Shown in pieces: positions 48,724 through 64,000 of a stretch of DNA of 64,000 nucleotides (its first letter is position 1; the number at the start of each line of letters is the position of its first letter). The stretch is from an uncultured Acidimicrobiales bacterium. Lineage in GTDB: Bacteria > Actinomycetota > Acidimicrobiia > Acidimicrobiales > SZUA-35. A program made the position numbers and the translations under genes. Location: NCBI GenBank assembly GCA_938002965.1, contig CALKZY010000030.1, positions 62,001 through 126,000 on the forward strand, written 5' to 3'. The notes beneath the pieces were generated by a model that was not told the origin of the DNA, made no database searches, and saw only the letters and a list, made by a program, of their open reading frames with translations.

Positions 48724-48803
48724 CCGTACAAGTGGTCGGTCCGGTGGATGACGTGAACGATCGCTAAGATTTGGCCACCGTCGGGCGAAAGCAAAGAGTG
48801 AGT

Positions 48804-49451
48804 ATGGAATCCTTTGACCGCTTCCGGGCCCATCCGTGGCACGGCCTCTCCGTGGGCCCTGATGCCCCTGAGCTGGTCGACGCCTACATCGAGATCACGC
48901 CGTTCGACGCGGTGAAGTACGAGATCGACAAATTGACCGGGTACCTGCGGGTCGACCGTCCGCAGGGTTCCTCTGCTCTACCGCCGACACTGTACGGGTT
49001 TGTTCCCCGAACGTACTGTGGTGATCGGGTGGCGGCGCTGACACCGGGTGCAGCGATGGGTGATCAGGATCCGCTCGATATCTGTGTTCTGAGTCAACAG
49101 CGAATCGACAGGGCCGAAGTAATTCTCACCGCCAGGGTGGTCGGTGGCCTGCAGGTGCTCGACGGCGGGGAAGCGGACGACAAAATTCTGGCCGTGTTGG
49201 CCTCCGACTCGGTGTTCCACTACGCACAACAACTAAACCAGCTGCCAAAAGCCGTGGTCGACCGACTGGTTCACTACTTCGGCACCTACAAGATGGACAT
49301 CTCCGGGCAGAAGCCCAACGAAATCGAGGTGGTCGGTACCTACGGACGTGATCACGCCCTTGCGGTAGTGGAAGCGTCCATGGCCGACTACAGCGAGAAA
49401 TTCGGAGTGGACGCCAAAAGCCGGGAGCTGGTTGACCGGCGCAAACGTTAG
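48804..49451 (+). CDS. ppa: Inorganic pyrophosphatase, family I
   Basis: 215 residues from ATG 48804. Metal site [16 protein letters not shown] carries the D-x-D-P-x-D signature. It also has [15 protein letters not shown] near 35 and [19 protein letters not shown]. The sequence is longer than the about 175-residue E. coli enzyme, with extra residues at the N-terminus, as in some eukaryotic-like or dispensable homologues. Hydrolyses pyrophosphate, cytoplasmic. Monocistronic. Confidence 0.92.
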
Positions 49452-49563
49452 CTCAACGTCGGTTTCACAGCTCACGTCGACCAAAAATCGTTGAACCGCA
49501 AGAACGGTCAAGACAGCGTCGACGGTCAAAACTAGGCTGACGGTCAATGGATCGAGAGTTGAC

Positions 49564-50520
49564 GTGAACCGGGTGGAGGAACTGCTTCCTCTGTTGGCTC
49601 GTTTGGCCGATGCCGTAGGCCAGCCGCCAACGCTTGCCGATCTGGCGGTTCAGGCCGGGAAATCGCCCCACCACCTGCAGCGGGTCTTCACCCGCGAGAT
49701 GGGGGAGAGCCCCAAGCAGTACAGCCAGCGGATCCGGTTGCAACAGTCCAGCGCCGCGCTGTTGGTCACCGACCGGAGCATCATCGACATTGCCTTCGCT
49801 AGTGGATTCGAGTCCCACGAAGGTTTCACCCGGGCGTTCAAGCGACGGTTCGGACAATCGCCGTCGAGTTTCAGAAGTCAACATCGCCCGACTTTCGAAG
49901 GTCTGACCTTGTCCAACCGGGCTCACCTGGGTGCCGCAACGCGCAGTGCGCCGTGTGTGGGGCTGTACCGGATGTCGACCACCTCGAACCGGCCATGGCC
50001 GAAAACAAGCAACGAAGGGAACATGTCAATGGGAGATTCAAGCACCTACTCGGTGGCCGAGAAGAGGGTGGAGGAAGTCACGTTTCTTCACGCCAGACGA
50101 CAGACCGACATGGAGGGGATGGCCAAGACTCTGGAAGAGGTCTTCCCGTCCATGTTCGAGATGTGCATGGCCAACGGACTACCACTGGCCGGCTATCCGA
50201 TTACCCGCTATCCGAGTTTCGGCCCGGGTCTGATCACTCTCGAAGCGGGGATGCCGTTGTCAGGCACGGTGGAAGAGCTGAAGGAGGCCGATCTCGGCGG
50301 CTTTGAACTTGGGACGCTGCACGGTGGCACGGTGGCCTTCACCGTGCACACCGGGCCCTACGAACGGCTGGCCGCGGCCTACACCGCCATCCAACGGTGG
50401 ATGGCGGCCAACGGCGAAATCTCGGCCGGCGCGCCGTGGGAGGTGTACATCACCGACCCGGGTGAGGTTCCGAACCCTGAGGAATGGCAGACCGAGGTGT
50501 ATCACCCGATCCAGCGTTAG
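49564..50520 (+). CDS. AraC-family regulator with GyrI-like effector domain
   Basis: 318 residues, GTG start. Two helix-turn-helices at 20-110: LADLAVQAGKSPHHLQRVF and IDIAFASGFESHEGFTRAFKRRFGQSP. Effector domain at about 165-318: VEEVTFLHARRQTDMEGM, FGPGLITLEAG, GGTVAFTVHTGPYERLAAAYTAI, PWEVYITDPGEVPNPEEW, the standard GyrI-like (SOUL-fold) pattern with the conserved Glu. Probably senses a lipophilic cation. Neighbours give no target. Confidence 0.92.
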   Translation: MNRVEELLPLLARLADAVGQPPTLADLAVQAGKSPHHLQRVFTREMGESPKQYSQRIRLQQSSAALLVTDRSIIDIAFASGFESHEGFTRAFKRRFGQSPSSFRSQHRPTFEGLTLSNRAHLGAATRSAPCVGLYRMSTTSNRPWPKTSNEGNMSMGDSSTYSVAEKRVEEVTFLHARRQTDMEGMAKTLEEVFPSMFEMCMANGLPLAGYPITRYPSFGPGLITLEAGMPLSGTVEELKEADLGGFELGTLHGGTVAFTVHTGPYERLAAAYTAIQRWMAANGEISAGAPWEVYITDPGEVPNPEEWQTEVYHPIQR

Positions 50521-50527
50521 TCCGCAC

Positions 50528-51643
50528 CTAGACGGCGGCGAACCAGCCCATCGCGCCCCTGGCGGCAATCGAGTGTTGGTGAGGGTGGAACATGTAGCGG
50601 CCCAGCTCTGGCAACGTGAACTCCACCGCCGCTCGTTCCATCTGGCCCAACGAGATGATGTCGGCGGTCAACAACGGGCTGTCGCCCATGCCGGACGGGT
50701 ACACATCGAACATCTCGGCGTGCAGGTGGAACGACGCAACCGGATCGAACTCGACCATGTTCAACACATACGCCCGGACTCGGTCTCCGACCGGGACCTT
50801 GATTGGGAATTTGTGGTAGAAACCGGCCACCCCGTTCCACGAGTACACCTCGTTGCCACCGTCTTCGTCCACATCCCAGCCGCTCAACGCCAACACCAGC
50901 TCGTGATCGACTGGTTGGCGCCCGTCCTCGACCGGGTCAACGATCAGCGTGCCGTAAAGTCCCTTCGAGATGTGCCGATCGATGGGCATGGTGTGGCAGT
51001 GATAAGGGTGGACGCCGGCTGGGCCGGCCACGATCTCGTACACCGTGTCGCCGCCCGGAGGGATCGGTTCCCAGCCGTCGTGTAGAGGTGAGTGCCGTCC
51101 GTGAAAGTGCAGGTTGTGGTCGTGGCCGGTGAGGTTGGAAAAGTGAACTCGAATTAGTTCGCCTTCGGTGGCTCGAATTGTTGGCCCGGGCGCCGTCCCG
51201 TTGTAGGTCCAAGCTGTGATGGTGTGTCCCCGACTGATGGCGTGGTTCACTTCGACCACCGACATCTCGACTTCCACCGTTCCCGTGGTGCGAGCGGGAG
51301 CATACGTCACATGGTCGAGGGCGTCGGCGGCGAGGTCATCGGGAGGGGCGTAAGGGCCCCCGTACGGCCCAGCGGCGGCGCCCACGGGAAGCTCCGATGA
51401 GAGCCGACCGCCCTGTGGATCGTTATTCGAGTAGGTGCCCTCATGGCCTTCTCCGTGGGGCTCCGCCGATCCCGAGTTGGTGCCATCGGCGGCGGCTCGA
51501 CTCCCACCCACCGCGCCGGCCAGGCCGGCCGCGGCAACGGTCAAACCGCCGACCCCCAGTTTCTTGAGGGCTTCCCGACGGTCGTGGTTCTCGCTCAGAA
51601 CACGCCGCCGATCAGCAACGCTCCCACGGTCACAGCCAGCCAT
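50528..51643 (-). CDS. Tat-exported two-domain multicopper oxidase
   Basis: 371 residues from ATG 51643, overlapping the upstream gene by 49 bp; a CTG at about 51593 is the other option. Twin-arginine signal DRREALKKLGVGGLTVAAAGLAG. Copper ligands: HFHGRHSPLHDGW, HPYHCHTMPIDRHISKGLYG (H-C-H-x-x-x-x-x-H), FHLHAEMFDVYP and MFHPHQHSIAARGAMGWF. The arrangement resembles nitrite-reductase/two-domain laccase types. Last gene of the IolE-like, cupredoxin, beta-helix operon. Confidence 0.85.
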   Translation of the reverse strand: MAGCDRGSVADRRRVLSENHDRREALKKLGVGGLTVAAAGLAGAVGGSRAAADGTNSGSAEPHGEGHEGTYSNNDPQGGRLSSELPVGAAAGPYGGPYAPPDDLAADALDHVTYAPARTTGTVEVEMSVVEVNHAISRGHTITAWTYNGTAPGPTIRATEGELIRVHFSNLTGHDHNLHFHGRHSPLHDGWEPIPPGGDTVYEIVAGPAGVHPYHCHTMPIDRHISKGLYGTLIVDPVEDGRQPVDHELVLALSGWDVDEDGGNEVYSWNGVAGFYHKFPIKVPVGDRVRAYVLNMVEFDPVASFHLHAEMFDVYPSGMGDSPLLTADIISLGQMERAAVEFTLPELGRYMFHPHQHSIAARGAMGWFAAV

Positions 51644-53304
51644 AGCACGAAACCGCCGATGACTGTTCCCAATCGCCGGCCGAGACCCCGGCCACGGTTG
51701 CCCACCAGCGCGAACGCTAACACTCCGAGAACCGGGACCAGCACTACAAACAACGTCCAGAACACCCGGGACCCGATGCCCATGGTTTCCCGGCCAGAAC
51801 CCAGCCACATCTTGATCAGCGCCCACAACCCTCCGACCAGCCACACCAGCGTCGGCACCCACCACATGAGAGCACCGAACAGCACCGGCCAAAAGCCGGC
51901 GCTGAGGACCACGCCGAGAATCGACGCCCGGCGACCGTCGATGTCAACTCCCTCCGGGAGTTCCGGGGTAGCTATTGCCGACGGGTTGAACTTCAACGAG
52001 TTGAACACGTCAACAGCCGGTTCTACGGAAGCGCCAGCCCCACCGGGCAGCTGCTCGAACGTCATCTCGGGCTTTGGGGCGTCGCCATGATCCAACTGAG
52101 GATTTTGGCCGTGGTGGGCCTGAGCGATGCGGCCAAGCGGATCGGATGAGGTGGCCAACCCGTACCACATCGGCAGGTTGATGCCGTCACAGCTGTGCAA
52201 CAACTCGAGCGTGCCCGGCACTGAAGACGAGGCTTCGTTGCCGCCGAAACAGGAACGCTGCTCGGCCGGACCACCCATCATTAGATCGGCTCGCCCGGAA
52301 CCCATAATCACGTTGTCGCGAACCTCGTTCCCACCGGAAGGCCATAGGGTGGCGTCGATCATGGACACCACCTGCACGCCCCCAGAGCGGTTGTTGACCA
52401 TTAGATTGTTGCGAACCACGGTGTCGCGGACCCCGGCCAGGACGACACCGTTTCCGTAGGCGGACCATTCGGCCGCCCGGTTGGGGGCGCGTTCGTCTTC
52501 GCCGTTGTGGTGGATGTAATTGCCGGCCACGACAACGTTCTCGGCCGGGGGAAGCAACTCGGAGTCCAGCGTGTTGGGTACGATTCCGGCGACGTTGTGG
52601 CGCCACTCGGAGTTGACGATGTACATGTTGGTCGACGAGTTGGTGCCCGAGTAGCCGAGGCCGTTGAATTCGGCGACAACATCGGTGACCACCGAATTGC
52701 ACGGGTTGCATTGACCGACATAGAAGCCGGCGTCCCAGGCGCCTGATGCATAGGAATGCTCGAACAGTCCGTCAACCGAATCGAAAGCGTAGATTCCGTA
52801 CACCCAAGCGTCGATGGCGGTCAGGTACGAACCTCGGTAACCGACAACGCCGTCCCAAAAGAACCCATTCACGGTGTAGCTGCGGGCCGTCATGTTCTCG
52901 ACCGCTACACCATCGGCGGTTACGAACACGCCGTTTGCCCGGGTGAATTCGCCGTCGAGTATCACTTCGTTGCGGTCGGTGCCTCGAATGGTCAGGCCCG
53001 GCGTGGTGACCGCCACCGCCTCTTTGTAGACGCCGGGTTCAATCAGGATCAGATCTCCCGGGTCGGCGGCGTCGACGGCCGACTGAATGGTGGGGTAATC
53101 GTCAGGCACGTTGCGAGTTTCGCCGCTCCAGGTTGTCGGGGCGTCACTCGGCGGTGTTTCGACGGTCAGCGCCCCGTCTGCGGCCGCGTCAGCGCTTTGA
53201 CCCGAAGCCGGGGCGGATCCGAGCGTAAGTAGCAGAGCGGCCAATGCCCCAATCACCGCCGTACCGGCTGCCGCTAGTGGCCTTCTCGATAGTCGTTGCC
53301 CCAT
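51595..53304 (-). CDS. NosD-like secreted beta-helix protein with membrane C-terminus
   Basis: 569 residues. Signal AAGTAVIGALAALLLTLGS. Parallel beta-helix from VPDDYPTIQSAVDAADPGDLI (typical right-handed-helix entry) through short repeats (GTDRNEVILDGEF, NGVVLAGVRDTVVRNNLMVNN, GNEVRDNVIMGSG). C-terminal membrane helices (FWPVLFGALMWWVP, WTLFVVLVPVLGVLAFALVGNRG), the latter like a PLDc_N-type segment. In the nos locus NosD helps load copper; the association with cupredoxin and MCO genes suggests a copper-related role here (inference). Confidence 0.8.
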   Translation of the reverse strand: MGQRLSRRPLAAAGTAVIGALAALLLTLGSAPASGQSADAAADGALTVETPPSDAPTTWSGETRNVPDDYPTIQSAVDAADPGDLILIEPGVYKEAVAVTTPGLTIRGTDRNEVILDGEFTRANGVFVTADGVAVENMTARSYTVNGFFWDGVVGYRGSYLTAIDAWVYGIYAFDSVDGLFEHSYASGAWDAGFYVGQCNPCNSVVTDVVAEFNGLGYSGTNSSTNMYIVNSEWRHNVAGIVPNTLDSELLPPAENVVVAGNYIHHNGEDERAPNRAAEWSAYGNGVVLAGVRDTVVRNNLMVNNRSGGVQVVSMIDATLWPSGGNEVRDNVIMGSGRADLMMGGPAEQRSCFGGNEASSSVPGTLELLHSCDGINLPMWYGLATSSDPLGRIAQAHHGQNPQLDHGDAPKPEMTFEQLPGGAGASVEPAVDVFNSLKFNPSAIATPELPEGVDIDGRRASILGVVLSAGFWPVLFGALMWWVPTLVWLVGGLWALIKMWLGSGRETMGIGSRVFWTLFVVLVPVLGVLAFALVGNRGRGLGRRLGTVIGGFVLWLAVTVGALLIGGVF

Positions 53305-53361
53305 TGATGCTTCATCCCCCTGGTTGCCAGCCGGTCTCCACGGTGTCCCGAGCGGTGTCTT

Positions 53362-53802
53362 CTATGGTGTTTGCACGGTGTCTTCAGTGGTGTCTTCAAC
53401 GGTGATGGTTGCCACCATGCCGGTCCATTCGCCAGTGTTGTTGTTCTTGACCGCATGCAGTGAGCAGTAGATGTTGTAAGTGCCCGGCTCGGTAAAGGTG
53501 TAGGTCCAGGTCTCGTCGGGCTTGTGGTCGCCGCCGTAATCGATCCGTGAGTCGAAGGCGCCATCGACATCAATCACATTGTGGTCGACGTTGCCCTCGT
53601 TGGGGAACTCGACGGTGTCCCCGGCGCTCACTACCAGATCGTCTGGCCGGTAGCGGTTGTCGAACATGCCCATAACCAGACCGCTCTCGTCGACGTTCGC
53701 ATCGCCGCACGCGCTCAATACCAACGCTGCACCCACGAACAACGACACGCCGACCTGGCGGGCTGGGCGCGCCCGGCCGATCCGATTCAGTCCGAGCGGC
53801 AA
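53362..53802 (-). CDS. Cupredoxin (plastocyanin-like) lipoprotein
   Basis: 146 residues if the TTG at 53800-53802 is the start; this is uncertain and no ribosome site is seen. Hydrophobic signal with lipobox LSAC. The body YRPDDLVVSAGDTVEFPNEG then VDHNVIDVDG carries the first His of a type I copper site. The end, PGTYNIYCSLHAVKNNNTG, has the usual Cys-x-x-His, with the final Met or Gln position less clear (MVATITV). Likely a membrane-bound electron carrier for the multicopper oxidase. Confidence 0.85.
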   Translation of the reverse strand: MPLGLNRIGRARPARQVGVSLFVGAALVLSACGDANVDESGLVMGMFDNRYRPDDLVVSAGDTVEFPNEGNVDHNVIDVDGAFDSRIDYGGDHKPDETWTYTFTEPGTYNIYCSLHAVKNNNTGEWTGMVATITVEDTTEDTVQTP

Positions 53803-53803
53803 A

Positions 53804-54697
53804 CTAGGTGAAACCCATCGAAACCAGAAACTGACGGTTGATTGCGGCGTCGTTGAGTGACGATGATCGATCGTCGGGATCTTGGTCCTGTTCGACGGTG
53901 CACCAACCGTCAAAGTCGGACTCGGTCAACAGGTTCTTAACGGCGTCGAAGTCAACCTCACCTTTGCCAAGATGACAGAAGATGCCTTGGGCACACGCTT
54001 CGTAGAACCCGGTGCGGTTAGCGATGACGTCTGCTTTGACACTGGGCTCGATGTCTTTGAAGTGAACGTAGTGCAGGCGGTCCATGTGTCTACGCATGAA
54101 GGCCACGGGGTCGCCACCGGCGTAGGTGAAGTGACCGGTGTCGACACACAAACCCATGATCGACGGGTCAACCTCAGCCAGAAGCCGCTCGGCTTCGACT
54201 TCGAAATCGAGGAAGCCGGCGGCGTGAGGATGAACGGACGCCGTTAGCCCGTAGTCCTCCGTGGCCATGCGGGCTACATGTGCCAACCGATCGCGGAACG
54301 CAGTCCACTCGTCAGCGCTCATTTGTTCTGCTTCGTCGGGCCGACCGGCGGTCGGGGCTCGGCGTTCGGCGATCGAGTCGATCATCACCAGCTGTTGAGC
54401 GCCGTGGGCGTTGAGCGCCTCGCATGTTCGGGTGGCGGCATCGAGCACCTCTTCCCACTTGGATGGATCATGGAATGGGCGGTAGACAACGGCGCCCACC
54501 AACTCCAAGTCGTGTTCGTTCAACGCTTCAGCGAGTTCGGTCGGTTCCTCCGGCATGTAGCCAATAGGACCGAGTTCGATACCTCGGTAGCCGGCCTCAG
54601 CGCACTCCGCCAGCATCGCGCGCCAAGCCGGGTTTCGTTCATCGCCGGCAAATTCAACTCCCCACGAGCAGGGAGCGTTAGCAATCCGAATAGCCAT
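53804..54697 (-). CDS. IolE-like sugar isomerase/epimerase (xylose-isomerase-like TIM barrel)
   Basis: 297 residues. AP_endonuc_2 fold: IANAPCSWGVEFAGDERNP near 6, YRGIELGPIGYMPEEP near 37, Glu/His metal site ASVHPHAAGFLDFEVE near 162, CVDTGHFTYAGGDPV near 194, VHFKDIEP near 220 and a Glu in TVEQDQDP near the end. Closest to IolE-type inosose dehydratases or hydroxypyruvate isomerases. First gene of the copper operon, with the cupredoxin following after 1 bp. Confidence 0.88.
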   Translation of the reverse strand: MAIRIANAPCSWGVEFAGDERNPAWRAMLAECAEAGYRGIELGPIGYMPEEPTELAEALNEHDLELVGAVVYRPFHDPSKWEEVLDAATRTCEALNAHGAQQLVMIDSIAERRAPTAGRPDEAEQMSADEWTAFRDRLAHVARMATEDYGLTASVHPHAAGFLDFEVEAERLLAEVDPSIMGLCVDTGHFTYAGGDPVAFMRRHMDRLHYVHFKDIEPSVKADVIANRTGFYEACAQGIFCHLGKGEVDFDAVKNLLTESDFDGWCTVEQDQDPDDRSSSLNDAAINRQFLVSMGFT

Positions 54698-54742
54698 GAC
54701 AAAAGCTTACGGTGCCGCTAGTCGATACTGAACCGGAATGAA

Positions 54743-55336
54743 GTGACAAAGGTTATTGTTGGCGTTTCAATGGTTCTTTCGACGAAGACGTCCGGATCGG
54801 GCCCGGCGGGCGCAGTTGCACAGCTGCGCCGGTGGTCACCCACACGGTGGCTGGTGGCGGTGATTTGTTCGGTTGCCGTGTCGTTGGCGGTCGGTTTGCC
54901 GACTGACGTGATACCGAATCCCGTCTTCGGTCGTCCGGTCCCCGTCACCTGGTGGTCCTACCCGGTCTTGGTCCTCACCGCCGTCCTGGGCGGCCTGCTG
55001 GTTGCAACGTACCTGCAGGACTCCGGTGGTGGGCTGGAACGATTTCCCGACGAGTTCGATGGGGACTCCGAGCGGACCGCCCGCACCGGAGGCGCAGCCG
55101 GACTGCTGTCGGTGTTCGCTGTGGGCTGTCCGGTCTGCAACCATCTTGTTGTGTTGGCGGTTGGTGTGACCGGGGCTCGGCAGTGGTTTGAGCCGCTCCA
55201 GCCGGTTCTGGCGGCTATGTCGCTGACGCTGCTGGCCTACGCCTTGGTCGCTCGCCTGACGTCGGCGGCATCGTGCCCGCTTCCCGGTTCCAGACGATCG
55301 GCGTTGTCCGGACGAACTGAACGATCTGACCTTTGA
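54743..55336 (+). CDS. Membrane protein with CPxC motif
   Basis: 197 residues from GTG 54743; ATG 54770 is an alternative start. Four hydrophobic segments, the first LVAVICSVAVSLAVGLPTDV. The third begins LLSVFAVGCPVCNHLVVLAVG, where Cys-Pro-Val-Cys at the membrane edge could bind a metal or cycle as a thiol pair. The last Cys (SAASCPLPGSR) is near the C-terminus. Divergent from the IolE-like gene across 45 bp. Confidence 0.75.
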   Translation: MTKVIVGVSMVLSTKTSGSGPAGAVAQLRRWSPTRWLVAVICSVAVSLAVGLPTDVIPNPVFGRPVPVTWWSYPVLVLTAVLGGLLVATYLQDSGGGLERFPDEFDGDSERTARTGGAAGLLSVFAVGCPVCNHLVVLAVGVTGARQWFEPLQPVLAAMSLTLLAYALVARLTSAASCPLPGSRRSALSGRTERSDL

Positions 55337-55352
55337 CCGGCATAGCCGGGCC

Positions 55353-55847
55353 TCAGCCGTCGAGGTCGATGACCGGAGTGCGGACTTGCAAACCTTCGGC
55401 TGTCATCAACTGGAGGGCGGCGGCCCTTGACCATGTGGAGACGGTGAATCGACCTTTGCGATCAACATCGACGGCTTGCGACTCGCCGTTTGGCTCGACG
55501 AGTTCGACAATCGCCCCTGCCGGAGACACCGTACCGGTCAGCCTGTACGAGCCGTCACCGGTTTCGTCGATGCTCAACTTCAACGAGATGCTTGGCAGAT
55601 GATACGACAGGTCTCGACGCTGGGGTTCGACGTTGCGTCGCAGTGCAGGCGCCGCTTCCTCGGTCGAACCTTCTTCCTGCAAGAGAACTTCGAGAGCGGC
55701 ATCCCATGAAAACGCTCGTTGCGCGCGCGACGCCAGATCTGCCGGCGGAGGGTCTCGTAGCTCGATGGCCTGCCGGAGTTGTGTCAGCAGCTGGCGATCT
55801 GCGTCTTGACTGTCGTTGTCGTCCTCTTGGTCTCTTCGCCCGTTCAT
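55353..55847 (-). CDS. Small soluble partner of ECF sigma factor (putative anti-sigma-like)
   Basis: 164 residues from ATG 55847. N-terminal third is helical and acidic: DADRQLLTQLRQAIELRDPPP followed by DLASRAQRAFSWDAALEVL, a pattern seen in proteins next to ECF sigma factors in actinobacteria. The rest is a beta module (ISLKLSIDETGDGSYRLTGTVSPAGAIVELV). No transmembrane helix. It starts 44 bp after the sigma factor stop. Anti-sigma action is inferred only from position. Confidence 0.7.
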   Translation of the reverse strand: MNGRRDQEDDNDSQDADRQLLTQLRQAIELRDPPPADLASRAQRAFSWDAALEVLLQEEGSTEEAAPALRRNVEPQRRDLSYHLPSISLKLSIDETGDGSYRLTGTVSPAGAIVELVEPNGESQAVDVDRKGRFTVSTWSRAAALQLMTAEGLQVRTPVIDLDG

Positions 55848-55891
55848 TTGCGTACCTGCTTTGATTGTCGCCGTTCCGTTTCCACCACCGA

Positions 55892-56461
55892 TCAGGTGGC
55901 GGATGAAAGACCGGCTCTCTGTTTGAGGGATTTGAGGCAGCGTTGACGACTTGGGCCTACATAGCCAACTGACGTTCCAAGGGCTTCGGCGATGTCCTGG
56001 TAGCTCATTTCGCTGTTCCAACACATAGCCAGGAGTTGACGGCACTGTTCGGACAGCGAATCGTACGCATCCAGGAGGGATTGGTGAAGCTCCGTGAGCT
56101 GAGCCATTTGCGACGGGTCTGACTGGCCGGTTGCCGGCAGTTGTCGTTCCGACATCTCGTCGTAGTCGACGAGTTGCATGTAGCGGTCTCTCTTCCGTCG
56201 AGCGGTGATTGCCTCTCGTCTCGTGGTTGTAGCCAGCCAAGCCGGCAGACCCCGAGGATCTTGGATTGCATGTCCCCGATCCTTCAACTTGAACCAAACC
56301 ATCTGTGAAACGTCGGCTGCTTCTTCGCGGTCGAGTCCTTGAGTTCTGGCCCAATGCCAGATAACTCCCGAGAACTCGTCAACCAGGTGCTTCCATGCCT
56401 CTTCATCGCCGCTCAGCGCGGCACCGAGGCCATGAGGATCTTCAGGGTTGATCGGTGGCAC
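55892..56461 (-). CDS. ECF-type RNA polymerase sigma factor
   Basis: 189 residues. Region 2: ALSGDEEAWKHLVDEFSGVIWHWARTQGLDREEAADVSQMVWFKL is the standard core-binding and -10 recognition helix set. Region 4: LSEQCRQLLAMCWNSEMSYQDIAEALGTSVGYVGPSRQRCLKSL is the -35 recognition domain, with G-Y-V-G-P-x-R-x-R-C-L as in several actinobacterial ECF groups. Downstream of the subtilase on the same strand. Confidence 0.93.
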   Translation of the reverse strand: MPPINPEDPHGLGAALSGDEEAWKHLVDEFSGVIWHWARTQGLDREEAADVSQMVWFKLKDRGHAIQDPRGLPAWLATTTRREAITARRKRDRYMQLVDYDEMSERQLPATGQSDPSQMAQLTELHQSLLDAYDSLSEQCRQLLAMCWNSEMSYQDIAEALGTSVGYVGPSRQRCLKSLKQRAGLSSAT

Positions 56462-56638
56462 AGCGCTTAGGCTAGCACTACTGACTTTGACCGCTGTAAG
56501 TGACCGTTTGAGGCACCTGGGCGCTTTGGCAGGCCATCTCCTTCGTCTGAGTTTCGTTTGCTACTTCAACCACAGCAGACGACAACTACGTCGTGGAAAT
56601 ACATCTTTGCCGACTTTTCAGCATGACGGCTTCCGGAG

Positions 56639-58243
56639 TCAGGGAGTGGGGGTTTGTTTGCCCACAAGGAGTGCCGGGTCGTAGGAGGCTGTCGTGTTGA
56701 CCACGGTGCCGAGGCCGTTCCATCGCAGCAGGGTTGGCTCGTCAATCAGCTCGTATTTGGCGTAGGCAAGAGCGTCTTTGGCGTCCATCTTCGTTTCGGT
56801 CCGTAGACGGTCGGCGGTGCGGGCGATAGTGGCCGCCACCGCTGGTGCGGCGAACGATGTGCCACTCCAGGAGATCACGGTGTCGTTGCGTCGGGCTCGT
56901 TCCACGTCGCTCTTGCGGAGGGTTTCCGCCTTCGGGTCCGACTCCTGGGCAGCGTCGGCGGAGGTCGCTCGATACGGATCGGGTAGGCGACCAACGATGT
57001 CGACGCCGGGTGCGCAGGCGTTGACCCAATGTCCGAAGTTGGTGAACCAGGCCGGGCCGTAGGGACCGGTGGCTGCGACTCCTACGACTTCAGCCAGAGC
57101 AGCCGGGAAGCTTGGGCGACAACTGCGATCGTTGCCGGCTGACGCCACAACGATCCATCCCTGTTCGGTTAGAGATTTGATGACGCGACGCAACGCCGGT
57201 GGCGCCATGTCATCCTCGCTGTACACCCCCAGCGAGAGGCTTATGACGCCCGGCCCGTCCGCCTTGTGTCGGTCGGCGAACTCCAGAATGGCTCTGGCGA
57301 CCGTCACGTCTGTTGTCCAACCCTGATTGGTGACAACGGGCTCTTGTTCGACAACACACCGCGGGGCGATCCGGTCGATGATGTCGCCGATGAAGGCATG
57401 GTGACCGTAGACCGGATCAAGAAAGCCATCCGCGTTCAAGTCACCGACATGCTCGGCTGTTTGACGAAGTCCCGGGTAGTCACCACCTTTGTCTCCGAGT
57501 TCGGTCAGGTAGTCGTTGATGATGGCGTGTCGTTCGATCAGTGCCGCTTTCGCCCCGTCGGAGAAGTCCAATGTGTCGAATACACCGACGACGATCGGGC
57601 CGTCGTCGACCTTCGGAAGCGTCGGTTGTAGGAAGATGTCTTCGTCGCGGCCTTTGTCTTTGTCGACGTCAAGGTAGGCGAAGGTGGCTTGGGGAACCCG
57701 GGCCAATCGGTCGGCGTCGAGCCTCGACAGGTTCGCGGCGCTGCAGCCACAATCCCCACGGGGATAGCCCACCAGGTGTGGACTTCCGGTTGGGTGTGGG
57801 CTTCCGGTTGGGTTCGCCCGCATTAGACCGTTTGGCATCGGGGCCGAAGGTCTCGCCGTGTACCCCCTCCGGCTCAGTGCGGTCGTGAACAGCAACTGAT
57901 CGGGAACGGCCAACAGGTTGTGCCGGCGGAGATGTTTCGCCACATCTCGTGCGCTGTTGGCGGCGCCACCTTCGATGTGGATTTCGAGATAACCGGCGGT
58001 GACGTCGCGGTTGTCATCACCGCTCGTGGTCCCGTCGATAGCGCCCGGTGGCGTGGCAATGCTCGCCTTGACGCCCAGCTTCTTGCAGTAGTCGAGCACA
58101 TCATCGGTCCGAGCCGGATCCTTGTTGCCGTCGTCCAAGTCAACGATGACGGATCTCTTTCGGTACGCCACACCGCGCCCGTAGTAGTCGGTGCCAACGT
58201 CGATTGGAGCCAGGTAGTCGCTGTTCGACGCCTGATCAGACAT
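56639..58243 (-). CDS. Intracellular S8 subtilase
   Basis: 534 residues from ATG 58243 (GGGGG upstream); in-frame codons further upstream lie inside the divergent CHAT gene leader. No signal peptide, so probably cytoplasmic. Catalytic Asp in VGVFDTLDFSDG near 221, His in YGHHAFIGDIIDRI near 281, Asn oxyanion in VASAGNDRSC and Ser in SWSGTSFAAPAVAATIA near 468. The N-terminal about 190 residues are not subtilisin-like; they contain Cys-rich GDCGCSA and a small tandem PTGSPH repeat. Divergent from the CHAT gene with 61 bp between starts; its own strand continues to the sigma factor. Confidence 0.9.
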   Translation of the reverse strand: MSDQASNSDYLAPIDVGTDYYGRGVAYRKRSVIVDLDDGNKDPARTDDVLDYCKKLGVKASIATPPGAIDGTTSGDDNRDVTAGYLEIHIEGGAANSARDVAKHLRRHNLLAVPDQLLFTTALSRRGYTARPSAPMPNGLMRANPTGSPHPTGSPHLVGYPRGDCGCSAANLSRLDADRLARVPQATFAYLDVDKDKGRDEDIFLQPTLPKVDDGPIVVGVFDTLDFSDGAKAALIERHAIINDYLTELGDKGGDYPGLRQTAEHVGDLNADGFLDPVYGHHAFIGDIIDRIAPRCVVEQEPVVTNQGWTTDVTVARAILEFADRHKADGPGVISLSLGVYSEDDMAPPALRRVIKSLTEQGWIVVASAGNDRSCRPSFPAALAEVVGVAATGPYGPAWFTNFGHWVNACAPGVDIVGRLPDPYRATSADAAQESDPKAETLRKSDVERARRNDTVISWSGTSFAAPAVAATIARTADRLRTETKMDAKDALAYAKYELIDEPTLLRWNGLGTVVNTTASYDPALLVGKQTPTP

Positions 58244-58304
58244 AGTGTTCCCCCATATAGTCCCTCGGTTTTGTTGCTCGGCAGTGGGTGGACGGAAACC
58301 GAGC

Positions 58305-61160
58305 ATGCAAAAATACAAACTTATGCCCCTGACGGTCGCCGAACAAGCAGTGCAGTTGGCCAAATCGGTTCCGCGTCGCGCCATCGAGTTGGCGCAAGGC
58401 GTCCTGGACGGTGACGTCGACAGCCACGAGAGAGCGACGGCACTATGGGCCGTCGGTCAGGCACAACATGAACTCGGCGAAAATGTGCAGGCGCTTGACT
58501 CGTTGCGGATGGCTGTTGAGCAAACGGTTGATCCACTGCGCTCGCGAATCGAAGTCACAACAGCGGCAATCGAATCCGCTGTCGGTATGCCGTCGGCCGC
58601 CATGGATCGTCTTGGCAGACTCGCCGAGCATCACGAGCCCGGCATCGCCGGGCTGGCCAAATCGCAGCGAGGCCTCATCAAGCTGTATGGCGGTGACGGG
58701 ACAGCAGCGTTGGTTGACCTCGAAGAATCACTGCCGCTACTGGAGGCGGCTGGAACGGAGCAAGCGGCTCTGGCCCGCGTGCGGAGCAATGTAGGATTTT
58801 GTCTGATTGTCCTCGGTCGCTATCAGGCCGCGGTGAGAGATCTCGGCCAAGCGGTGATCGACGCTCACGACACTGGACAGGACACGGTGGCGGCTGCAGC
58901 CAGGCAGAATCTCGGTTTCGCCCAGGCTCAACTCGGCAATCTGCCCAGCGCCTTGCAATCGCTGGAGGACGCCCGGCGTCAATACCAGGCATTGGGCGAT
59001 CCGTCGCGAGGTTTGACCGGCCTCTACGACGATCTGGCTGAGACGTATCGGTTGGCCGGGCTCACGCAGGACGCCGTCCGCTACTCGCGGGTCGGCTCAT
59101 GGACGGCTCGACAGGGGGACAACATCGAACGGCAGGCCGAAGCCGAGTATCGGCGGGCGGTATGCCTGCTGGAGCACGGCAACAGGAAAGCGGCTGCCGA
59201 TGCGGCGGGTCGAGCCGCCGCACTGTTCGATCGGAGTGGGCGGCGGTTGTGGAGGCAGCGGGCCGAACTTATCGCTGTCGAAGCCTCGACCTTGCCCGAC
59301 GTGGCGACGGGCCTAGCCCCTGGTTTGGTTGAACGAATTTCGAATCTTGCAGGAGATCTCGTCACCCGTGGGCATACCAACGAACCACGAAGTCTTGTCA
59401 ATCGTGCCGTTCATCGCCTGATTGACGAGGGCCGGGCTGACGAGGCTCAGACCCTGATTGATCACCATGACATCCCTCTGGCTGAGACCGGTGGTGAGCT
59501 CGCTTCCGAGTCGGTTCTTGACCGACTCGAATTGCAGTATCGTGCCGCTCTGATCGCTGTCCTGGATCAGAAACCGCTCGAGCGACCACTGGCGGAAGCC
59601 CGCTGGTTGGTGACTGAGCACAATCTGACCTTGGGTGATCAAGAACTTCGGGCCGGAGCGGCTCGCCTGACCGACCGGTTCCGGTCGCTGGCGGTTCGCA
59701 GTGCTCTCGGTGGCGGGTGGGACGCCGTTCTCGGAAGTGCCCCCGACGGTGGGCCGAGTGATGAGACTCATGACGACGCCAACCGCAAGGCGATGGCCGT
59801 GCTGCTGGCGGAAGAGGAATGGCGGGCAATCTCCTTGACGTTGCCGCGGGCAGTGGCTGCCACCGATGACGAAACGACCCAGCTGCTGGTGGAACTCCGA
59901 CAAACGAATCGAATCGAATCGAACAGCATTCACCCGTCCTCGGACCCGGCCTCAGGCTCAGGCCCAGGCTCGGACAGCGTTGATTCGGACAGCGTTGACT
60001 CACGGCGAGCCGAGTTGGAAGACCAACTACGGTTGCGGTCGATGACGGCCAATCCGAACGACTCGCTTCAGAAGCCATCATCGACAGCTGTCGGTCGTCA
60101 GGCGTTGGATCGATCATTTATCGAGCGGACGGTCAGCCAGCTCGACGGAGCGGTAACCGTTGAGTGGATCGAGCATCACGGTCAGTTGATCGGCGTTCGG
60201 ATCGCCCCCGACGGTTCAATGCGACTGTGGCCGGCGGGAACCGTAGCCGCTGCCGAACGTCTGGCTCGGTTCGTTCACCAGTCACTCGGCGACATCAATG
60301 CCACAACCGACACCGACGCCGCACGATCGAGCCTGGCCGACCTTTTTGACGACTGCGCCGACTTGCAGACATGTCTCTGGCCCGACCAGCCGGATCCGTG
60401 GCTAGACGGCGAGACCGGTTACGGCGTCAGGCCGATGGTGCTTTCGCCTCCATCTGCACTCATGGCTTTGCCTTGGCGTCTCATCGCCGGCTCACCGAGG
60501 GCGCCCGCCGATGTGACCCTCACCCCGAGTATTGCCTTTTGGCGGCGTGTGGAACTTGAAAGGTCGCCGGACGATTCGCTTTTCGACACAGCGGCCGTGG
60601 TCACCGGACCCGGACTGCTTGGTGTAGGAGCCGACGAAGCGGTGGTCAAACGGGTCCTGCCTCATAGTGACGTGGTCGAATCTGGGAATGCGAACTGCGA
60701 GCGGGTCAAAGAGATTTTGACGTCAGCCCGTTTTGTTCACCTGGCGTGTCACGGGCGGTTTCGACCCGAGAGCCCTCGGTTCTCATCGTTGACCATGGCC
60801 GACGGTCCGCTCACCCTGTTTGAATTGGATTGGCTTGAACGTGTCCCCGATCTGGTGATGTTGGCTGCCTGCGACTCGGGCAAGGTGAGTGCTCGACCTG
60901 GCGGCGAGCTTCTTGGCACGGCGCCGGCCATGTTGGCGGCCGGGGCCAGCACTGTCATCGCCCCGATTTGTCCGGTTCGCGATCACGAGGTTTCGGAGGC
61001 TCTCGTCCCCTTCTACGAGGCTTTGGCTCAAGGACCGTCGGCGGCTGCCCAGGCCATGGATCTGGCATTCACAGGTGAACGGCCGGAAGTGGTGGCCACC
61101 GCCGCGTCGTTCCAAGTGGTGGGAGCCAGTTTGCGATTTGGATCCGGGCCTCGGGAGTAG
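58305..61160 (+). CDS. TPR-CHAT caspase-like protease
   Basis: 951 residues from ATG 58305 (ATG 58323 is an alternative). N-terminal half: about ten TPR-like helical pairs (e.g. DSHERATALWAVGQAQHELGENVQALDSL-type units). A Ser/Asp/Gly linker at about 550 (GSGPGSDSVDSDSVDS). C-terminal CHAT: MALPWRLIAG near 725, His in FVHLACHGRF and Cys in VMLAACDSG, the caspase-like His-Cys dyad, then LGTAPAMLAAGASTVIAP. Bacterial CHAT proteases cleave protein partners in defence or signalling. It stands divergent to the subtilase. Target unknown. Confidence 0.9.
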   Translation: MQKYKLMPLTVAEQAVQLAKSVPRRAIELAQGVLDGDVDSHERATALWAVGQAQHELGENVQALDSLRMAVEQTVDPLRSRIEVTTAAIESAVGMPSAAMDRLGRLAEHHEPGIAGLAKSQRGLIKLYGGDGTAALVDLEESLPLLEAAGTEQAALARVRSNVGFCLIVLGRYQAAVRDLGQAVIDAHDTGQDTVAAAARQNLGFAQAQLGNLPSALQSLEDARRQYQALGDPSRGLTGLYDDLAETYRLAGLTQDAVRYSRVGSWTARQGDNIERQAEAEYRRAVCLLEHGNRKAAADAAGRAAALFDRSGRRLWRQRAELIAVEASTLPDVATGLAPGLVERISNLAGDLVTRGHTNEPRSLVNRAVHRLIDEGRADEAQTLIDHHDIPLAETGGELASESVLDRLELQYRAALIAVLDQKPLERPLAEARWLVTEHNLTLGDQELRAGAARLTDRFRSLAVRSALGGGWDAVLGSAPDGGPSDETHDDANRKAMAVLLAEEEWRAISLTLPRAVAATDDETTQLLVELRQTNRIESNSIHPSSDPASGSGPGSDSVDSDSVDSRRAELEDQLRLRSMTANPNDSLQKPSSTAVGRQALDRSFIERTVSQLDGAVTVEWIEHHGQLIGVRIAPDGSMRLWPAGTVAAAERLARFVHQSLGDINATTDTDAARSSLADLFDDCADLQTCLWPDQPDPWLDGETGYGVRPMVLSPPSALMALPWRLIAGSPRAPADVTLTPSIAFWRRVELERSPDDSLFDTAAVVTGPGLLGVGADEAVVKRVLPHSDVVESGNANCERVKEILTSARFVHLACHGRFRPESPRFSSLTMADGPLTLFELDWLERVPDLVMLAACDSGKVSARPGGELLGTAPAMLAAGASTVIAPICPVRDHEVSEALVPFYEALAQGPSAAAQAMDLAFTGERPEVVATAASFQVVGASLRFGSGPRE

Positions 61161-61193
61161 ACCCGACTCCGACTTCGTCTCAGACACCCGAGG

Positions 61194-62447
61194 TCAGGTT
61201 CTGAGGATGAGGTCCACCAACTTGCCGGCTTCGATTTCACTGTCGAACTCAGCGAGCACCTTTTTGCGGCCCGCTACTCCTAGTTCAGTGCGCAGAATCG
61301 GGTCGGCGGCCAAGCGAATGATGGCCTCGCTCAGACTCTGGATATCGGTTGGGGGCACGACCAATCCGGTTTCGCCGTGCACGACCAGTTCGGGAACCCC
61401 GGCGATGCCGGTGCTTACGACCGGTAACTCGGATGCCATGGCCTCCATGAGGACCACCGGAAGGCCTTCGGAAAAGCTGGGCAGGACAAAGATATCTGCG
61501 TCGGCCAACAGTCCGGCCACCTCGGCCGGGGACCGAGAACCGACGAACGAGACCTGTGACCCCAAGCCCAATTCCGTCGCTTCCCGTTCGAACATGACTC
61601 GGTCCGGTCCGTCCCCAACCACCGTCAACGACAGCTCCGGCTGAAGCGGTGAGGTGTTGAGTTGATGTAGCGCTCGCAGCAGAACGGTCACGCCTTTGCC
61701 GGCCACGAGCCGACCGACGAAGATCAGTCGGCCCCCGTCTCCTCTGCTTCCCGACGCGGCGTTACTGATCGCCTGATACCGGTTGGGTTGTACACCACAG
61801 TGGACCACGTGCAGTTTGGTGAAATCGGCGTTGTCGGCGAAGACGGCGGCTTGGCTGCGGGCGTAGTTGCTAATGGCAACAACAAAGGCCGCACGCCTGA
61901 TCTTCTCGTCCAAACGCCAGGTGTACGGTTCGAAGAAGATTGCGGCGCCGTGAATGGTGAAGCTGAACGGAACGTCGGTAATGGTGGCCGCCAACATGGC
62001 CACGGTGCAGCTCGAGTCGGCCAGGTGGTTGTGGAGGTGCTGAATGCCTCGACGTTCGAGTTCGTCGGCCAGTAGAACCGCTTCCAGCAGGTAAAACAGT
62101 TGATACAACGTACCTTTAGTTCCCGGTCGGCGAGTGGCCCAGGCCAGTCGGGTTGCGGCCGCCAACCGCCTCGGTCGTCGAAGCAACAACCGCAGCAGGC
62201 TGGTGGCGAGCCGTGGTGAGCGGGCCAACTCCAAAAGGTACGTGGTGTCGACGTACGGGTTGGCCGGGGTATCGGTTGAGTCTTCGGCGTCGATCCGGGT
62301 ATCGATGCCGGGGCGCCGAACCGAGAAGGCGTGAACCGAAATTCCCCGTTTGGTCAGTCCGACTATCTCCCGGCGAATCCACGTGTCGGTGACACGAGGG
62401 AACTCACCGGTGAGGTAGGCGACGACCTTTCGGGGCGTGGACTCCAC
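61194..62447 (-). CDS. GT4-family glycosyltransferase
   Basis: 417 residues, GTG start overlapping the epimerase stop by one base (TAGTG). N-terminal Rossmann half: VVAYLTGEFPRVTDTWIRREIVGLTKRG. C-terminal half: RLIFVGRLVAGKGVTVLLRALHQL near 235, the donor site FVLPSFSEGLPVVLMEAMASELPVV near 320 with the E-x7-E motif, and GETGLVVPPTD. Inverting/retaining details not visible; retaining GT4 expected. Part of a surface glycan cluster. Confidence 0.93.
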   Translation of the reverse strand: MESTPRKVVAYLTGEFPRVTDTWIRREIVGLTKRGISVHAFSVRRPGIDTRIDAEDSTDTPANPYVDTTYLLELARSPRLATSLLRLLLRRPRRLAAATRLAWATRRPGTKGTLYQLFYLLEAVLLADELERRGIQHLHNHLADSSCTVAMLAATITDVPFSFTIHGAAIFFEPYTWRLDEKIRRAAFVVAISNYARSQAAVFADNADFTKLHVVHCGVQPNRYQAISNAASGSRGDGGRLIFVGRLVAGKGVTVLLRALHQLNTSPLQPELSLTVVGDGPDRVMFEREATELGLGSQVSFVGSRSPAEVAGLLADADIFVLPSFSEGLPVVLMEAMASELPVVSTGIAGVPELVVHGETGLVVPPTDIQSLSEAIIRLAADPILRTELGVAGRKKVLAEFDSEIEAGKLVDLILRT

Positions 62448-63544
62448 TAGTGGAATGTGGCTTCCAACTCGGACTGTTCAACTGCGACGCTGGCCTCGAT
62501 TGCTTCGGACAGGTTGTATCGGGGTGACCAGTTCAGCAGTCGTTTGGCTCGGGCGTTGGTGTACCTCAGCGGTTTGAAGCGGGCGTGGAGTCGGTCGGGG
62601 ACGAACAGTCCGGGAAACTTGGCCCGTCCGCCCAGCAGGTGCCGGTTGGCGGCCTTGATGCCCGAGGCGAAGGCGTTCATCACCGGCCACGGGATCGTGA
62701 CCGTCGGCGGTGTCGCCCGGCGATCCGCCACCTCTTCAACGTAGGTGTTCTGAGTGGGAAGGTCGTCGTCGACGATGTTGATGATCTCGCCGGACAGAAT
62801 TGAGTTTGGTTGCGACAGGTGCTCGGCGGCCAGCACGATCGCTTCGGCACAGTTCTCCACATAAGTGAGAGGAAGCGTGGCGTTGTTGCCGATGCGGAGG
62901 AAGCGGGGGCCGAAGTCGGAACCCAGAAGGGCGTGCCATAGGTTGTTCGGGCCGTAAATCATGCCGGGTCGAAGAATGACCACGTTGTTGCCCTGCTCAG
63001 CGAAGTCTTGATAGAGGCGTTCCTGAATCAATTTGGTTCGGGCGTATTCGTCGCGAAGGACAGGATTGCGATCGATCGGCGACCGTTCATCGATGGTCTC
63101 ACCTGGTGCGATGTTCAGGTAGTCGTAGACCGAGAAGGTGCTGATGGCCACGAGGTTCTTGATTCCGGCGACGGTCATGGCGTTGAGCAGGTTCTCGGTG
63201 CCGACGACGGTCCCGGCGAACTGACTGTGGAAGTCGCCTTCCTTGGTGGCGGCGAGATGCACCACTGTGCTGACCCCGGCCAATGACTCGGCGATACCAC
63301 TGGCGGACCGAAGGTCGATCGTGGCCTGGTCTGTGGCGGCCGGCAGATGATCGCCCGCTGTGCCCCGGCGACTCGTTGCTGTTGTAGGGTGGCCCCTTCT
63401 TTGGGCCTCGGCGACGACGGCCCGACCAACAAAACCGGTTCCCCCGGTTATGTATAGTTTCGCCGGTGCCGGTTCGGGCTGTGGCGCGCGGCGTGGCGTA
63501 GCGTCAGGTTTCTGGTCGGCAATGGTTGACATCACGCTACTCAC
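62447..63544 (-). CDS. Extended SDR, NAD-dependent epimerase/dehydratase-like
   Basis: 365 residues. Cofactor loop YITGGTGFVGRAVVAEAQ near 31; VVHLAATKEGDFHSQF near 95; catalytic Ser-Thr region AISTFSVYDY and Tyr-Lys in DEYARTKLIQERL near 168. About 25 Pro-rich residues precede the fold. Likely modifies a nucleotide sugar or glycan intermediate. Overlaps the next gene on the strand by 4 bp. Confidence 0.9.
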   Translation of the reverse strand: MSSVMSTIADQKPDATPRRAPQPEPAPAKLYITGGTGFVGRAVVAEAQRRGHPTTATSRRGTAGDHLPAATDQATIDLRSASGIAESLAGVSTVVHLAATKEGDFHSQFAGTVVGTENLLNAMTVAGIKNLVAISTFSVYDYLNIAPGETIDERSPIDRNPVLRDEYARTKLIQERLYQDFAEQGNNVVILRPGMIYGPNNLWHALLGSDFGPRFLRIGNNATLPLTYVENCAEAIVLAAEHLSQPNSILSGEIINIVDDDLPTQNTYVEEVADRRATPPTVTIPWPVMNAFASGIKAANRHLLGGRAKFPGLFVPDRLHARFKPLRYTNARAKRLLNWSPRYNLSEAIEASVAVEQSELEATFH

Positions 63545-64000
63545 AGTCGAGTTTTCTCCTCAAGTAGTTGATCGACGAGGAGGCACACGGCCCGCATGTC
63601 GTCGGTGGTAACCGGCAGATCGTCGCCGGTGGCGAGGGCACGGTAGGTCTGGTCGAGCATCAGGTGAAGACCCTCGTATGGGGTGCGTTGCATCACCTTG
63701 CGTCCAAGGTTGGCTACACCGCTGCGAATGAGATCGGCGCCGTTGGCGACGTGGTTGGCGATGGGGCTTAGTTGCGAGCCGCCGGCGCGTGGCATAACGA
63801 CCCTGGTATTGGGCTGAAACAAGTCGGTTTCCGCCCAGCCTCGACTCCCGTAAACCCGGACGGTAAACGTGTCGGGTCCGGCGCCGGCGTCGAATCGGAA
63901 CCGACCGTGAATCGGGCCTTCAGGTCCGTCTCCAATCATGACGGCGTCGAGGTTGTCGTAGCGGAACAGCGGGTGGCCGCTGTGATTGCTCCATGCTGCG
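63541..64000 (-). CDS. Gfo/Idh/MocA-like oxidoreductase, C-terminal part (cut by window)
   Basis: Open from the window edge to 63541; 153 residue positions visible. Visible: SNHSGHPLFRYDNLDAVMIG and GRFRFDAGAGPDTFTVRVYGSRG, matching the C-terminal alpha/beta sheet of Gfo/Idh/MocA sugar dehydrogenases, then LMLDQTYRALATGDDLPVT near the end. The NAD-binding N-terminus lies outside. First visible gene of the glycan operon, with 4-bp overlap to the epimerase. Confidence 0.7.
   Translation of the reverse strand, partial: AAWSNHSGHPLFRYDNLDAVMIGDGPEGPIHGRFRFDAGAGPDTFTVRVYGSRGWAETDLFQPNTRVVMPRAGGSQLSPIANHVANGADLIRSGVANLGRKVMQRTPYEGLHLMLDQTYRALATGDDLPVTTDDMRAVCLLVDQLLEEKTRL

What the first reader, a model, noticed from the sequence alone, without database searches (positions are those of the whole stretch)
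55353..61160. ECF sigma - soluble partner - subtilase - CHAT protease module
Two proteases, one caspase-like with TPR sensors and one signal-less subtilase, stand divergent, with an ECF sigma factor and small partner behind. A proteolytic cascade that activates or kills is a reasonable model, similar in spirit to CHAT systems in which a CHAT protease cleaves a partner. The partner protein may be an anti-sigma cleaved by the subtilase.
Basis: partly seen in the sequence, partly recalled or inferred. Interest (0 to 1): 0.75.

Follow-up and report, generated by a model that had tools for sequence, protein, structure and literature searches.

The report
Protease-controlled sigma factor switch
Four neighbouring genes, found together across many actinobacteria, look like a switch in which a caspase-like protease cuts a protein that holds a gene-activating sigma factor in check; a similar switch is known from CRISPR immunity, but here no CRISPR system is attached and the trigger is unknown.

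Summary
The window holds an ECF sigma factor (SIG), a small downstream protein (PART), an intact subtilase (SUB) and an intact TPR-CHAT protease (CHAT). The genome has a second complete copy. Of 131 non-duplicate neighbourhoods examined, 76 hold all four genes, in 13 gene orders. In 100 phylum-wide genomes PART and module-type CHAT occur together (12 both, 1 PART only, 2 CHAT only).

The gene association is already in print: group ECF54, with 'carboxypeptidase', subtilase and CHAT, thought to lack an anti-sigma factor (PMC8999054). My evidence points elsewhere. PART is most likely the anti-sigma factor: a deep-branching PART has an anti-sigma-like N-terminus (17 of 21), and the 'carboxypeptidase' is its carboxypeptidase-regulatory-like beta domain (20 of 21). 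One arginine is kept in 97 of 98 PARTs, in a predicted disordered linker between its two domains: the likely cut site. CHAT genes divergent from SUB carry a GATACA-type element (23 of 42; 0 of 38 behind PART).

Best reading: CHAT cuts PART and frees SIG, which probably activates CHAT. It works like CRISPR Craspase and CalpL/T/S, without CRISPR. Cleavage, binding and the trigger are inferred; SUB's role is open.

The parts
55892..56461 (-). SIG: ECF sigma factor, 189 aa, GTG start
   Evidence: TIGR02937 E 3.4e-22; Sigma70_r2 and r4
55353..55847 (-). PART: predicted soluble anti-sigma factor, 164 aa (two helices, disordered linker, beta sandwich)
   Evidence: AlphaFold2 model pLDDT 85; homologous to a variant with anti-sigma-like N-terminus
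55638..55640 (-). codon of Arg70 of PART, predicted P1 residue of the cut site
   Evidence: Arg in 97 of 98 distinct PART sequences; lies in the predicted disordered linker; coordinates
56639..58243 (-). SUB: cytoplasmic-type subtilase (S8), 534 aa, catalytic D223, H281, S463
   Evidence: PF00082 E 1.5e-12; triad conserved in the family; coordinates
58305..61160 (+). CHAT: TPR-CHAT caspase-like protease, 951 aa (start may be the ATG at 58323)
   Evidence: PF12770 E 1e-22, TPR
60750..60752 (+). catalytic His816 of CHAT
   Evidence: invariant, 75 of 75 rows; coordinates
60870..60872 (+). catalytic Cys856 of CHAT
   Evidence: invariant, 75 of 75 rows; coordinates
60981..60983 (+). Asp893 of CHAT, near-invariant, 37 residues after Cys856; possible S1-pocket residue (unproven)
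   Evidence: 74 of 75 rows; its column aligns with Ser666 of Craspase TPR-CHAT
58312..58317 (+). AATACA, -10-like box of the element found before CHAT
   Evidence: family motif [GA]ATACA in 23 of 42 CHAT genes divergent from SUB; coordinates
58290..58295 (+). GGACGG, purine-rich -35-like box, 16 nt before the AATACA
   Evidence: purine block at about this spacing in the collected sites; coordinates
56469..56474 (-). TAGCCT, housekeeping-type -10 box 7 nt before the SIG start (leaderless layout)
   Evidence: sequence; TANNNT peak before SIG in the family

Best explanation
A cytoplasmic protease-gated sigma switch. SIG and PART are made together, often from a housekeeping-type promoter; PART binds and holds SIG inactive. 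On an unknown signal sensed by the TPR part of CHAT, CHAT becomes active and cuts PART after the conserved arginine in its linker, separating the sigma-binding helices from the beta domain. The remaining fragment is then lost, possibly with help from SUB, and SIG is freed. Free SIG switches on its regulon, probably including CHAT itself through the GATACA-type promoter (positive feedback). Shown by computation: the genes, intact active sites, co-conservation, the near-invariant arginine, the element before CHAT. Inferred: PART-SIG binding, cleavage and its site, the role of SUB, which sigma factor reads the promoter, the trigger.
For: Co-conservation: 76 of 131 loci have all four genes; PART/CHAT genome co-occurrence Fisher p 1.1e-12; 10 of 10 genomes whose SIG-PART has no near CHAT carry a module-type CHAT elsewhere. 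PART lies just behind SIG in 105 of 107 placements. Anti-sigma identity: the variant PART (21 sequences) matches NCBIfam anti-sigma factor in 17 of 21 (best 6.6e-7) and zf-HC2 in 6 of 21, and is homologous to canonical PART (hhalign 98.1%, E 1.2e-13). Cut site: Arg 97 of 98, 12 of 12 later PARTs, 21 of 21 variants (two genes shared with the 12), in a linker whose residues 58-67 are below pLDDT 50. In a SIG-PART chain model the whole sigma superposes on sigma from anti-sigma complexes (SigW Z 12.3, rmsd 4.7, 156 aligned; CnrH Z 12.0, rmsd 4.0, 152), while RNAP-bound ECF sigma aligned over both domains gives rmsd 22-28. Element before CHAT: 23 of 42 against 0 of 38, 0 of 42 on the SUB strand.
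Against: Canonical PART itself matches no anti-sigma family and its fold search gave no match at E <= 0.001. The three single variant PARTs whose scores were shown are far below the NCBIfam cut-off (13.9-15.8 bits against 100). The chain model has pTM only 0.60 and no control fold of SIG alone could be run, so the compact sigma may be AlphaFold's default. The separase residue that reads P1 Arg (D2151) is paired in print with K670 of Craspase TPR-CHAT (PMC9729208); in my alignment the CHAT Asp893 falls four residues earlier, so Arg specificity is not established. Twelve loci have SIG, PART and CHAT without SUB, and seven SIG, PART and SUB without CHAT (contig ends cut some). The GATACA motif was found and counted in largely the same, related loci.
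Confidence: 0.55

Rival explanations
1. The proteases keep SIG low by degrading SIG itself, with no anti-sigma factor (the published proposal for ECF54).
For: Stated for ECF54 in the review PMC8999054 from gene context.
Against: PART shows an anti-sigma relationship through its deep-branching variant; the 'carboxypeptidase' of the context is most simply its regulatory-like beta domain (20 of 21), not a peptidase; no near-invariant residue in the sigma2-sigma4 linker stands out as the PART arginine does.
Confidence: 0.15
2. The subtilase cuts PART and CHAT acts first by activating the subtilase (proteolytic cascade).
For: SUB is intact (Ser and Asn 77 of 77 rows) and present in most loci; subtilases can cut disordered linkers (general knowledge).
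Against: SIG, PART and CHAT without SUB in 12 of 131 loci (contig ends cut some); subtilisins seldom demand one fixed arginine (general knowledge). The SUB N-terminal region was poorly covered by the profile, so a cut-like residue there was not properly tested.
Confidence: 0.15
3. PART is a protein inhibitor or adaptor of CHAT or SUB rather than of SIG, and SIG only transcribes the module.
For: PART and CHAT co-occur tightly; small partners of proteases exist (general knowledge).
Against: PART stays next to SIG in 105 of 107 placements while CHAT and SUB move around it, and SIG-PART pairs stand without the other two in 15 loci; anti-sigma matches of the variant.
Confidence: 0.1
4. The module is a phage-defence or cell-death system (this can be true together with the best explanation).
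For: TPR-CHAT proteases act in CRISPR-linked and gasdermin systems (PMC10028731, PMC9729208, passages).
Against: Only weak partial PADLOC matches; no additional conserved effector gene evident in the neighbour clustering; no CRISPR array near.
Confidence: 0.2

Closest known systems
ECF54 sigma factor group (Huang 2015; Casas-Pastor 2021; both cited through the review PMC8999054)
   Same: ECF sigma with carboxypeptidase(-regulatory), subtilase and CHAT genes around it, in actinobacteria
   Different: The review treats it as a system without an anti-sigma factor; here the small partner is read as the anti-sigma factor and as the substrate
Craspase / CASP of type III-E CRISPR (Csx29, Csx30, CASP-sigma; PMC10028731)
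   Same: TPR-CHAT protease, sigma inhibitor as substrate, ECF sigma, sigma-binding motifs inside the own locus
   Different: No CRISPR array seen near; CHAT is not Csx29 (16.1 bits against a cut-off of 300); no kinship of PART to Csx30 was detected; predicted P1 is Arg; a subtilase is added
CalpL/CalpT/CalpS of type III CRISPR (PMC11417357)
   Same: A protease cuts an anti-sigma factor that holds an ECF sigma factor
   Different: Lon-type protease driven by cyclic tetra-adenylate; no CHAT, no subtilase
SAVED-CHAT / prokaryotic caspase cascade with PC-sigma (recalled; only a mention of SAVED-CHAT was seen in PMC11417357)
   Same: CHAT protease, second protease, small partner, sigma factor
   Different: CRISPR-triggered; the second protease is a caspase, not a subtilase
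RseA/RsiW-type regulated proteolysis of anti-sigma factors (passages in PMC10028731)
   Same: Stepwise proteolysis frees an ECF sigma factor
   Different: Those anti-sigma factors sit in the membrane; no membrane segment is seen in PART

Membership tests
ECF54 sigma group | Conserved context of carboxypeptidase(-regulatory) domain, subtilase and CHAT | tested here: met
   76 of 131 loci with all four genes; CarboxypepD_reg in 20 of 21 variant PARTs
ECF54 sigma group | Match to the ECF54 sequence model | not testable with these tools
   No ECF54 model came up in the libraries used; the two defining papers are not held
Craspase (type III-E CASP) | Protease is Csx29 | tested here: not met
   NF041237 16.1 bits, cut-off 300
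Craspase (type III-E CASP) | Partner is Csx30 | tested here: inconclusive
   PART profiles found no such chain in the PDB at E <= 1 or E <= 10; whether Csx30 is in that copy was not checked
Craspase (type III-E CASP) | CRISPR array in the locus | tested here: not met
   No array-like direct repeats in window 46000-64000
Craspase (type III-E CASP) | Cas7-11 effector in the locus | not tested
   No search for Cas7-11 was run
CHAT protease family (PF12770) | Domain match and His/Cys dyad | tested here: met
   E 1e-22, 81.4 bits against a cut-off of 24; His and Cys 75 of 75
Subtilase family (S8) | Domain match and Asp/His/Ser triad | tested here: met
   E 1.5e-12; D 75 of 77, H 76 of 77, S 77 of 77
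Anti-sigma factor (ASD class) | Anti-sigma domain in the sequence | tested here: inconclusive
   Canonical PART: none. Variant: NF052375 in 17 of 21, best 6.6e-7, zf-HC2 in 6 of 21; the single scores shown were 13.9-15.8 bits against a cut-off of 100
Anti-sigma factor (ASD class) | Binds and inhibits its sigma factor | not testable with these tools
   Needs an experiment; chain model only suggestive
IetAS defence system | IetS subtilase | tested here: not met
   PADLOC 17.1 bits over 48 residues only; NCBIfam 11.1 bits against a cut-off of 900

The most novel reading that the evidence does not exclude
Actinobacteria carry, as an ordinary chromosomal module, the protease - anti-sigma - sigma switch known so far from CRISPR systems: a TPR-CHAT sensor cuts its anti-sigma factor after one fixed arginine and the freed sigma factor amplifies the CHAT gene. 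CRISPR Craspase would then be one RNA-triggered version of a wider regulatory principle, and different TPR arrays may read different signals.
Probability: 0.42. Interest if true: 0.8.

Novelty: new variant of a known kind. Interest (0 to 1): 0.62.

Why it matters
ECF54 is a recognised sigma group whose control is unexplained and which the review treats as lacking an anti-sigma factor. Here a candidate inhibitor, a candidate cutter and even the residue of the cut are named, so a single in vitro assay can decide. If right, it supplies a CRISPR-free counterpart of Craspase and CalpL/T/S, gives an orphan class of bacterial TPR-CHAT proteases a substrate, and offers a new protease-sensor pair for study.

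Tried and rejected
Neighbours: clustering of 1063 other ORFs in the loci gave no further gene that looks part of the module; its largest clusters (up to 12 loci) look like long or housekeeping ORFs by their first residues and were not identified by search.

S1 pocket: I hoped that Asp893 of CHAT is the separase Asp that reads P1 arginine. The print (PMC9729208) pairs separase D2151 with K670 of Craspase TPR-CHAT; my alignment puts the Asp893 column on Ser666, four residues earlier. The separase alignment itself was not shown by the tool. So this is left open.

Fold of PART: Foldseek in the PDB had no match at E <= 0.001; the beta domain resembles many beta sandwiches at Z up to 9.9, which is common and says nothing about function. 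The helical part was barely tested. I saw no Csx30 or anti-sigma chain in the rows shown.

Motif: a strict two-box pattern found only 16 of 100 CHAT genes, and 1 of the 17 CHAT genes in the later loci; the single box sorted by gene layout was clearer. SIG upstream regions also hold some GATAC and GTATC (17 and 24 of 124); by eye some of these are housekeeping -10 boxes.

Rows dropped: ten duplicate loci (L075-L078, L108, L116, L126, L141, L166, L169) before the counts; the first eight. Identical sequences were removed before the counts. L171 was set aside as not a PART (match to the beta part only); L195 ends before the arginine. The 12 later PARTs and the 21 variants share two genes (L164 = L183, L165 = L187). 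One PART row (L120) was misplaced in alignment A7 and left in.
Full report
WHAT IS THERE. The window lies in a 4.69 Mb draft genome; its closest relatives in the named collection are Acidimicrobiales MAGs. On the minus strand lie SUB (56639-58243), SIG (55892-56461) and PART (55353-55847); CHAT (58305-61160) runs the other way. Family matches: SIG sigma70-ECF E 3.4e-22, SUB Peptidase_S8 E 1.5e-12, CHAT E 1e-22 with TPR_12 E 2.8e-10.

A SECOND COPY AND A CONSERVED MODULE. The same genome has exactly two CHAT matches and two PART matches, each paired; the second set (L003) reads SUB-CHAT-SIG-PART on one strand. I fetched neighbourhoods of SIG relatives from 61 related genomes (40 loci fetched) and the best 80 loci of one scan of named genomes, then 19 stretches chosen by PART or CHAT matches. 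After dropping ten duplicates, 131 loci with at least one module gene were counted: 76 hold all four genes, 15 SIG and PART only, 12 SIG, PART and CHAT, 11 SIG only, 7 SIG, PART and SUB, the remaining 10 other mixes. Contig ends cut some of them. The 76 complete loci show 13 gene orders; CHAT and SUB change side and strand, while PART directly follows SIG in 105 of 107 placements (duplicates included). Shuffled order with kept content speaks for shared function.

GENOME-LEVEL TEST. In 100 genomes drawn evenly from the phylum, PART (E <= 1e-5) was found in 13 and module-type CHAT (E <= 1e-40) in 14; both in 12, PART only in 1 (G076, 30 bits, beta part only), CHAT only in 2. Fisher p is 1.1e-12. 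Of the two CHAT-only genomes one (G078) is a weak match, the other (G095) turned out to have a divergent PART between CHAT and SIG. Ten of ten genomes whose SIG-PART lacks a nearby CHAT have a module-type CHAT elsewhere.

WHAT PART IS. Canonical PART has no convincing family match in Pfam. The divergent PART of G095 led to 21 sequences from that family of genomes. They are homologous to canonical PART (hhalign probability 98.1, E 1.2e-13, 130 columns). Of these, 17 of 21 match NCBIfam 'anti-sigma factor' (best E 6.6e-7), 4 of 21 'putative anti-sigmaE protein', 6 of 21 zf-HC2 and 3 of 21 RskA_N, and 20 of 21 CarboxypepD_reg (best E 1.9e-6). In the three single proteins scanned, the anti-sigma match covers N-terminal residues between 12 and 85. 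The anti-sigma factor RskA is among the solved-structure matches of that region, at a non-significant E 0.48. So PART reads as a soluble anti-sigma factor with a beta-sandwich tail, and the 'carboxypeptidase' of the published ECF54 context is most simply this regulatory-like domain, not a peptidase.

THE ARGININE. In 98 distinct PART sequences one arginine is kept in 97, the most conserved residue of the protein; the next residue is G, S or A in 85. The only exception is His in L046, a SIG-PART pair with no CHAT or SUB in its 18 kb, although the same genome has CHAT elsewhere (G069). Twelve PARTs found later all keep it, as do all 21 variants (two genes are shared between these sets). The AlphaFold2 model of window PART (94 sequences, mean pLDDT 85) has helices 4-31 and 38-59, a beta sandwich from 77, and the least certain stretch between them: 58-67 are below pLDDT 50, and Arg70 sits in that linker. 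A nearly invariant arginine in a loop without predicted structure is what a protease site looks like. Clan CD proteases with arginine in P1 include separase, gingipain R and MALT-1 (PMC4626109, passages read).

THE PROTEASES. CHAT His and Cys are kept in 75 of 75 aligned rows, Asp893 in 74 of 75; SUB Asp 75 of 77, His 76 of 77, Asn and Ser 77 of 77. CHAT is related to Craspase TPR-CHAT (PDB 7x8a E 7e-10) and to separase (7nj1 E 2.1e-6) but is not Csx29 by the NCBIfam cut-off. Whether its pocket takes arginine could not be settled (see Tried and rejected).

SIG-PART MODEL. In a Solirubrobacter locus (L146) sigma and partner genes are in one frame; read through the stop they give a 336-residue chain, modelled with 130 rows, six of them paired. 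Mean pLDDT is 87 and pTM 0.60; the arginine (245 by my count) lies in the pLDDT < 50 stretch 242-246. The sigma part superposes as a whole on sigma factors taken from anti-sigma complexes: SigW-RsiW Z 12.3, rmsd 4.7, 156 aligned; CnrH-CnrY Z 12.0, 4.0, 152; RpoE-NepR Z 9.8, 4.3, 151. RNAP-bound ECF sigma factors match by one domain or at rmsd 22-28. Other sigma chains from anti-sigma complexes (1or7, 4nqw, 6in7) match by one domain only. Without SIG alone as control and without coordinates this is only suggestive.

PROMOTERS. Before SIG, TANNNT boxes peak in the 10-nt bins starting at -60 and -50 from the first conserved residue (21 and 27 hits in 120 regions; other occupied bins 1-12), as for leaderless housekeeping promoters; the window has TAGCCT 7 nt before the SIG start. 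Before CHAT another element stands out: [GA]ATACA in 22 of 89 upstream regions against 0.85 expected, often with a purine block about 15-17 nt earlier. Sorted by layout: 23 of 42 CHAT genes divergent from SUB have it, 0 of 38 behind PART, 0 of 10 behind SUB, 1 of 4 behind SIG, 0 of 6 with no module gene close upstream; 1.65% of random windows do. On the SUB strand of the divergent regions it is in 0 of 42; in the three loci where SUB heads a SUB-CHAT unit (L110, L114, L119) it lies before SUB. So it marks the promoter of the CHAT unit. That SIG reads it is inference. The motif was picked and counted in largely the same loci, which are related to one another.

WHAT IS KNOWN. [quoted passage not shown] CalpL cuts the anti-sigma factor CalpT, whose fragment stays on CalpS until, it is thought, further degradation (PMC11417357, passages); SUB could be such a second step here. 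Searches of the held library for CHAT with subtilase and ECF, ECF54, TPR-CHAT with anti-sigma, caspase HetF with sigma factor, and CHAT domain with anti-sigma factor listed no paper whose title or shown abstract describes this anti-sigma reading; most subscription papers are not in that library.

VERDICT. The association is known; the anti-sigma identity of the partner, the fixed arginine and the element before CHAT are, as far as these searches show, new. I rate the whole mechanism at 0.55, with PART as anti-sigma factor the firmest part and the roles of SUB and of the trigger the weakest.

Noticed in passing
L003, L037, L038 downstream of PART: A large Ser/Thr-kinase-like ORF (1026 aa in L003, by eye) lies in the neighbourhood of the second-type module; related ORFs cluster in three loci.
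   Followed up: no
L101 and L162: Two modules stand side by side (head to head in L101, in tandem in L162), each with its own CHAT and SUB.
   Followed up: no
L145 (Fimbriimonadaceae MAG): SIG, CHAT and SUB relatives outside Actinomycetota by its title, with no PART found by the profile; a divergent partner may be there.
   Followed up: no
window 58264-58303: CTCGGTTT and AAACCGAG form an 8-base inverted repeat in the short SUB/CHAT intergenic region; could be an operator or chance.
   Followed up: no
L170, L172, L173: CHAT-SUB pairs without SIG or PART in the stretch, in genomes that have PART elsewhere.
   Followed up: partly
C-terminus of PART in L146 and L089: The partner ends in a T/W-containing motif (TDWV, PWTT) whose role is unknown.
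   Followed up: no
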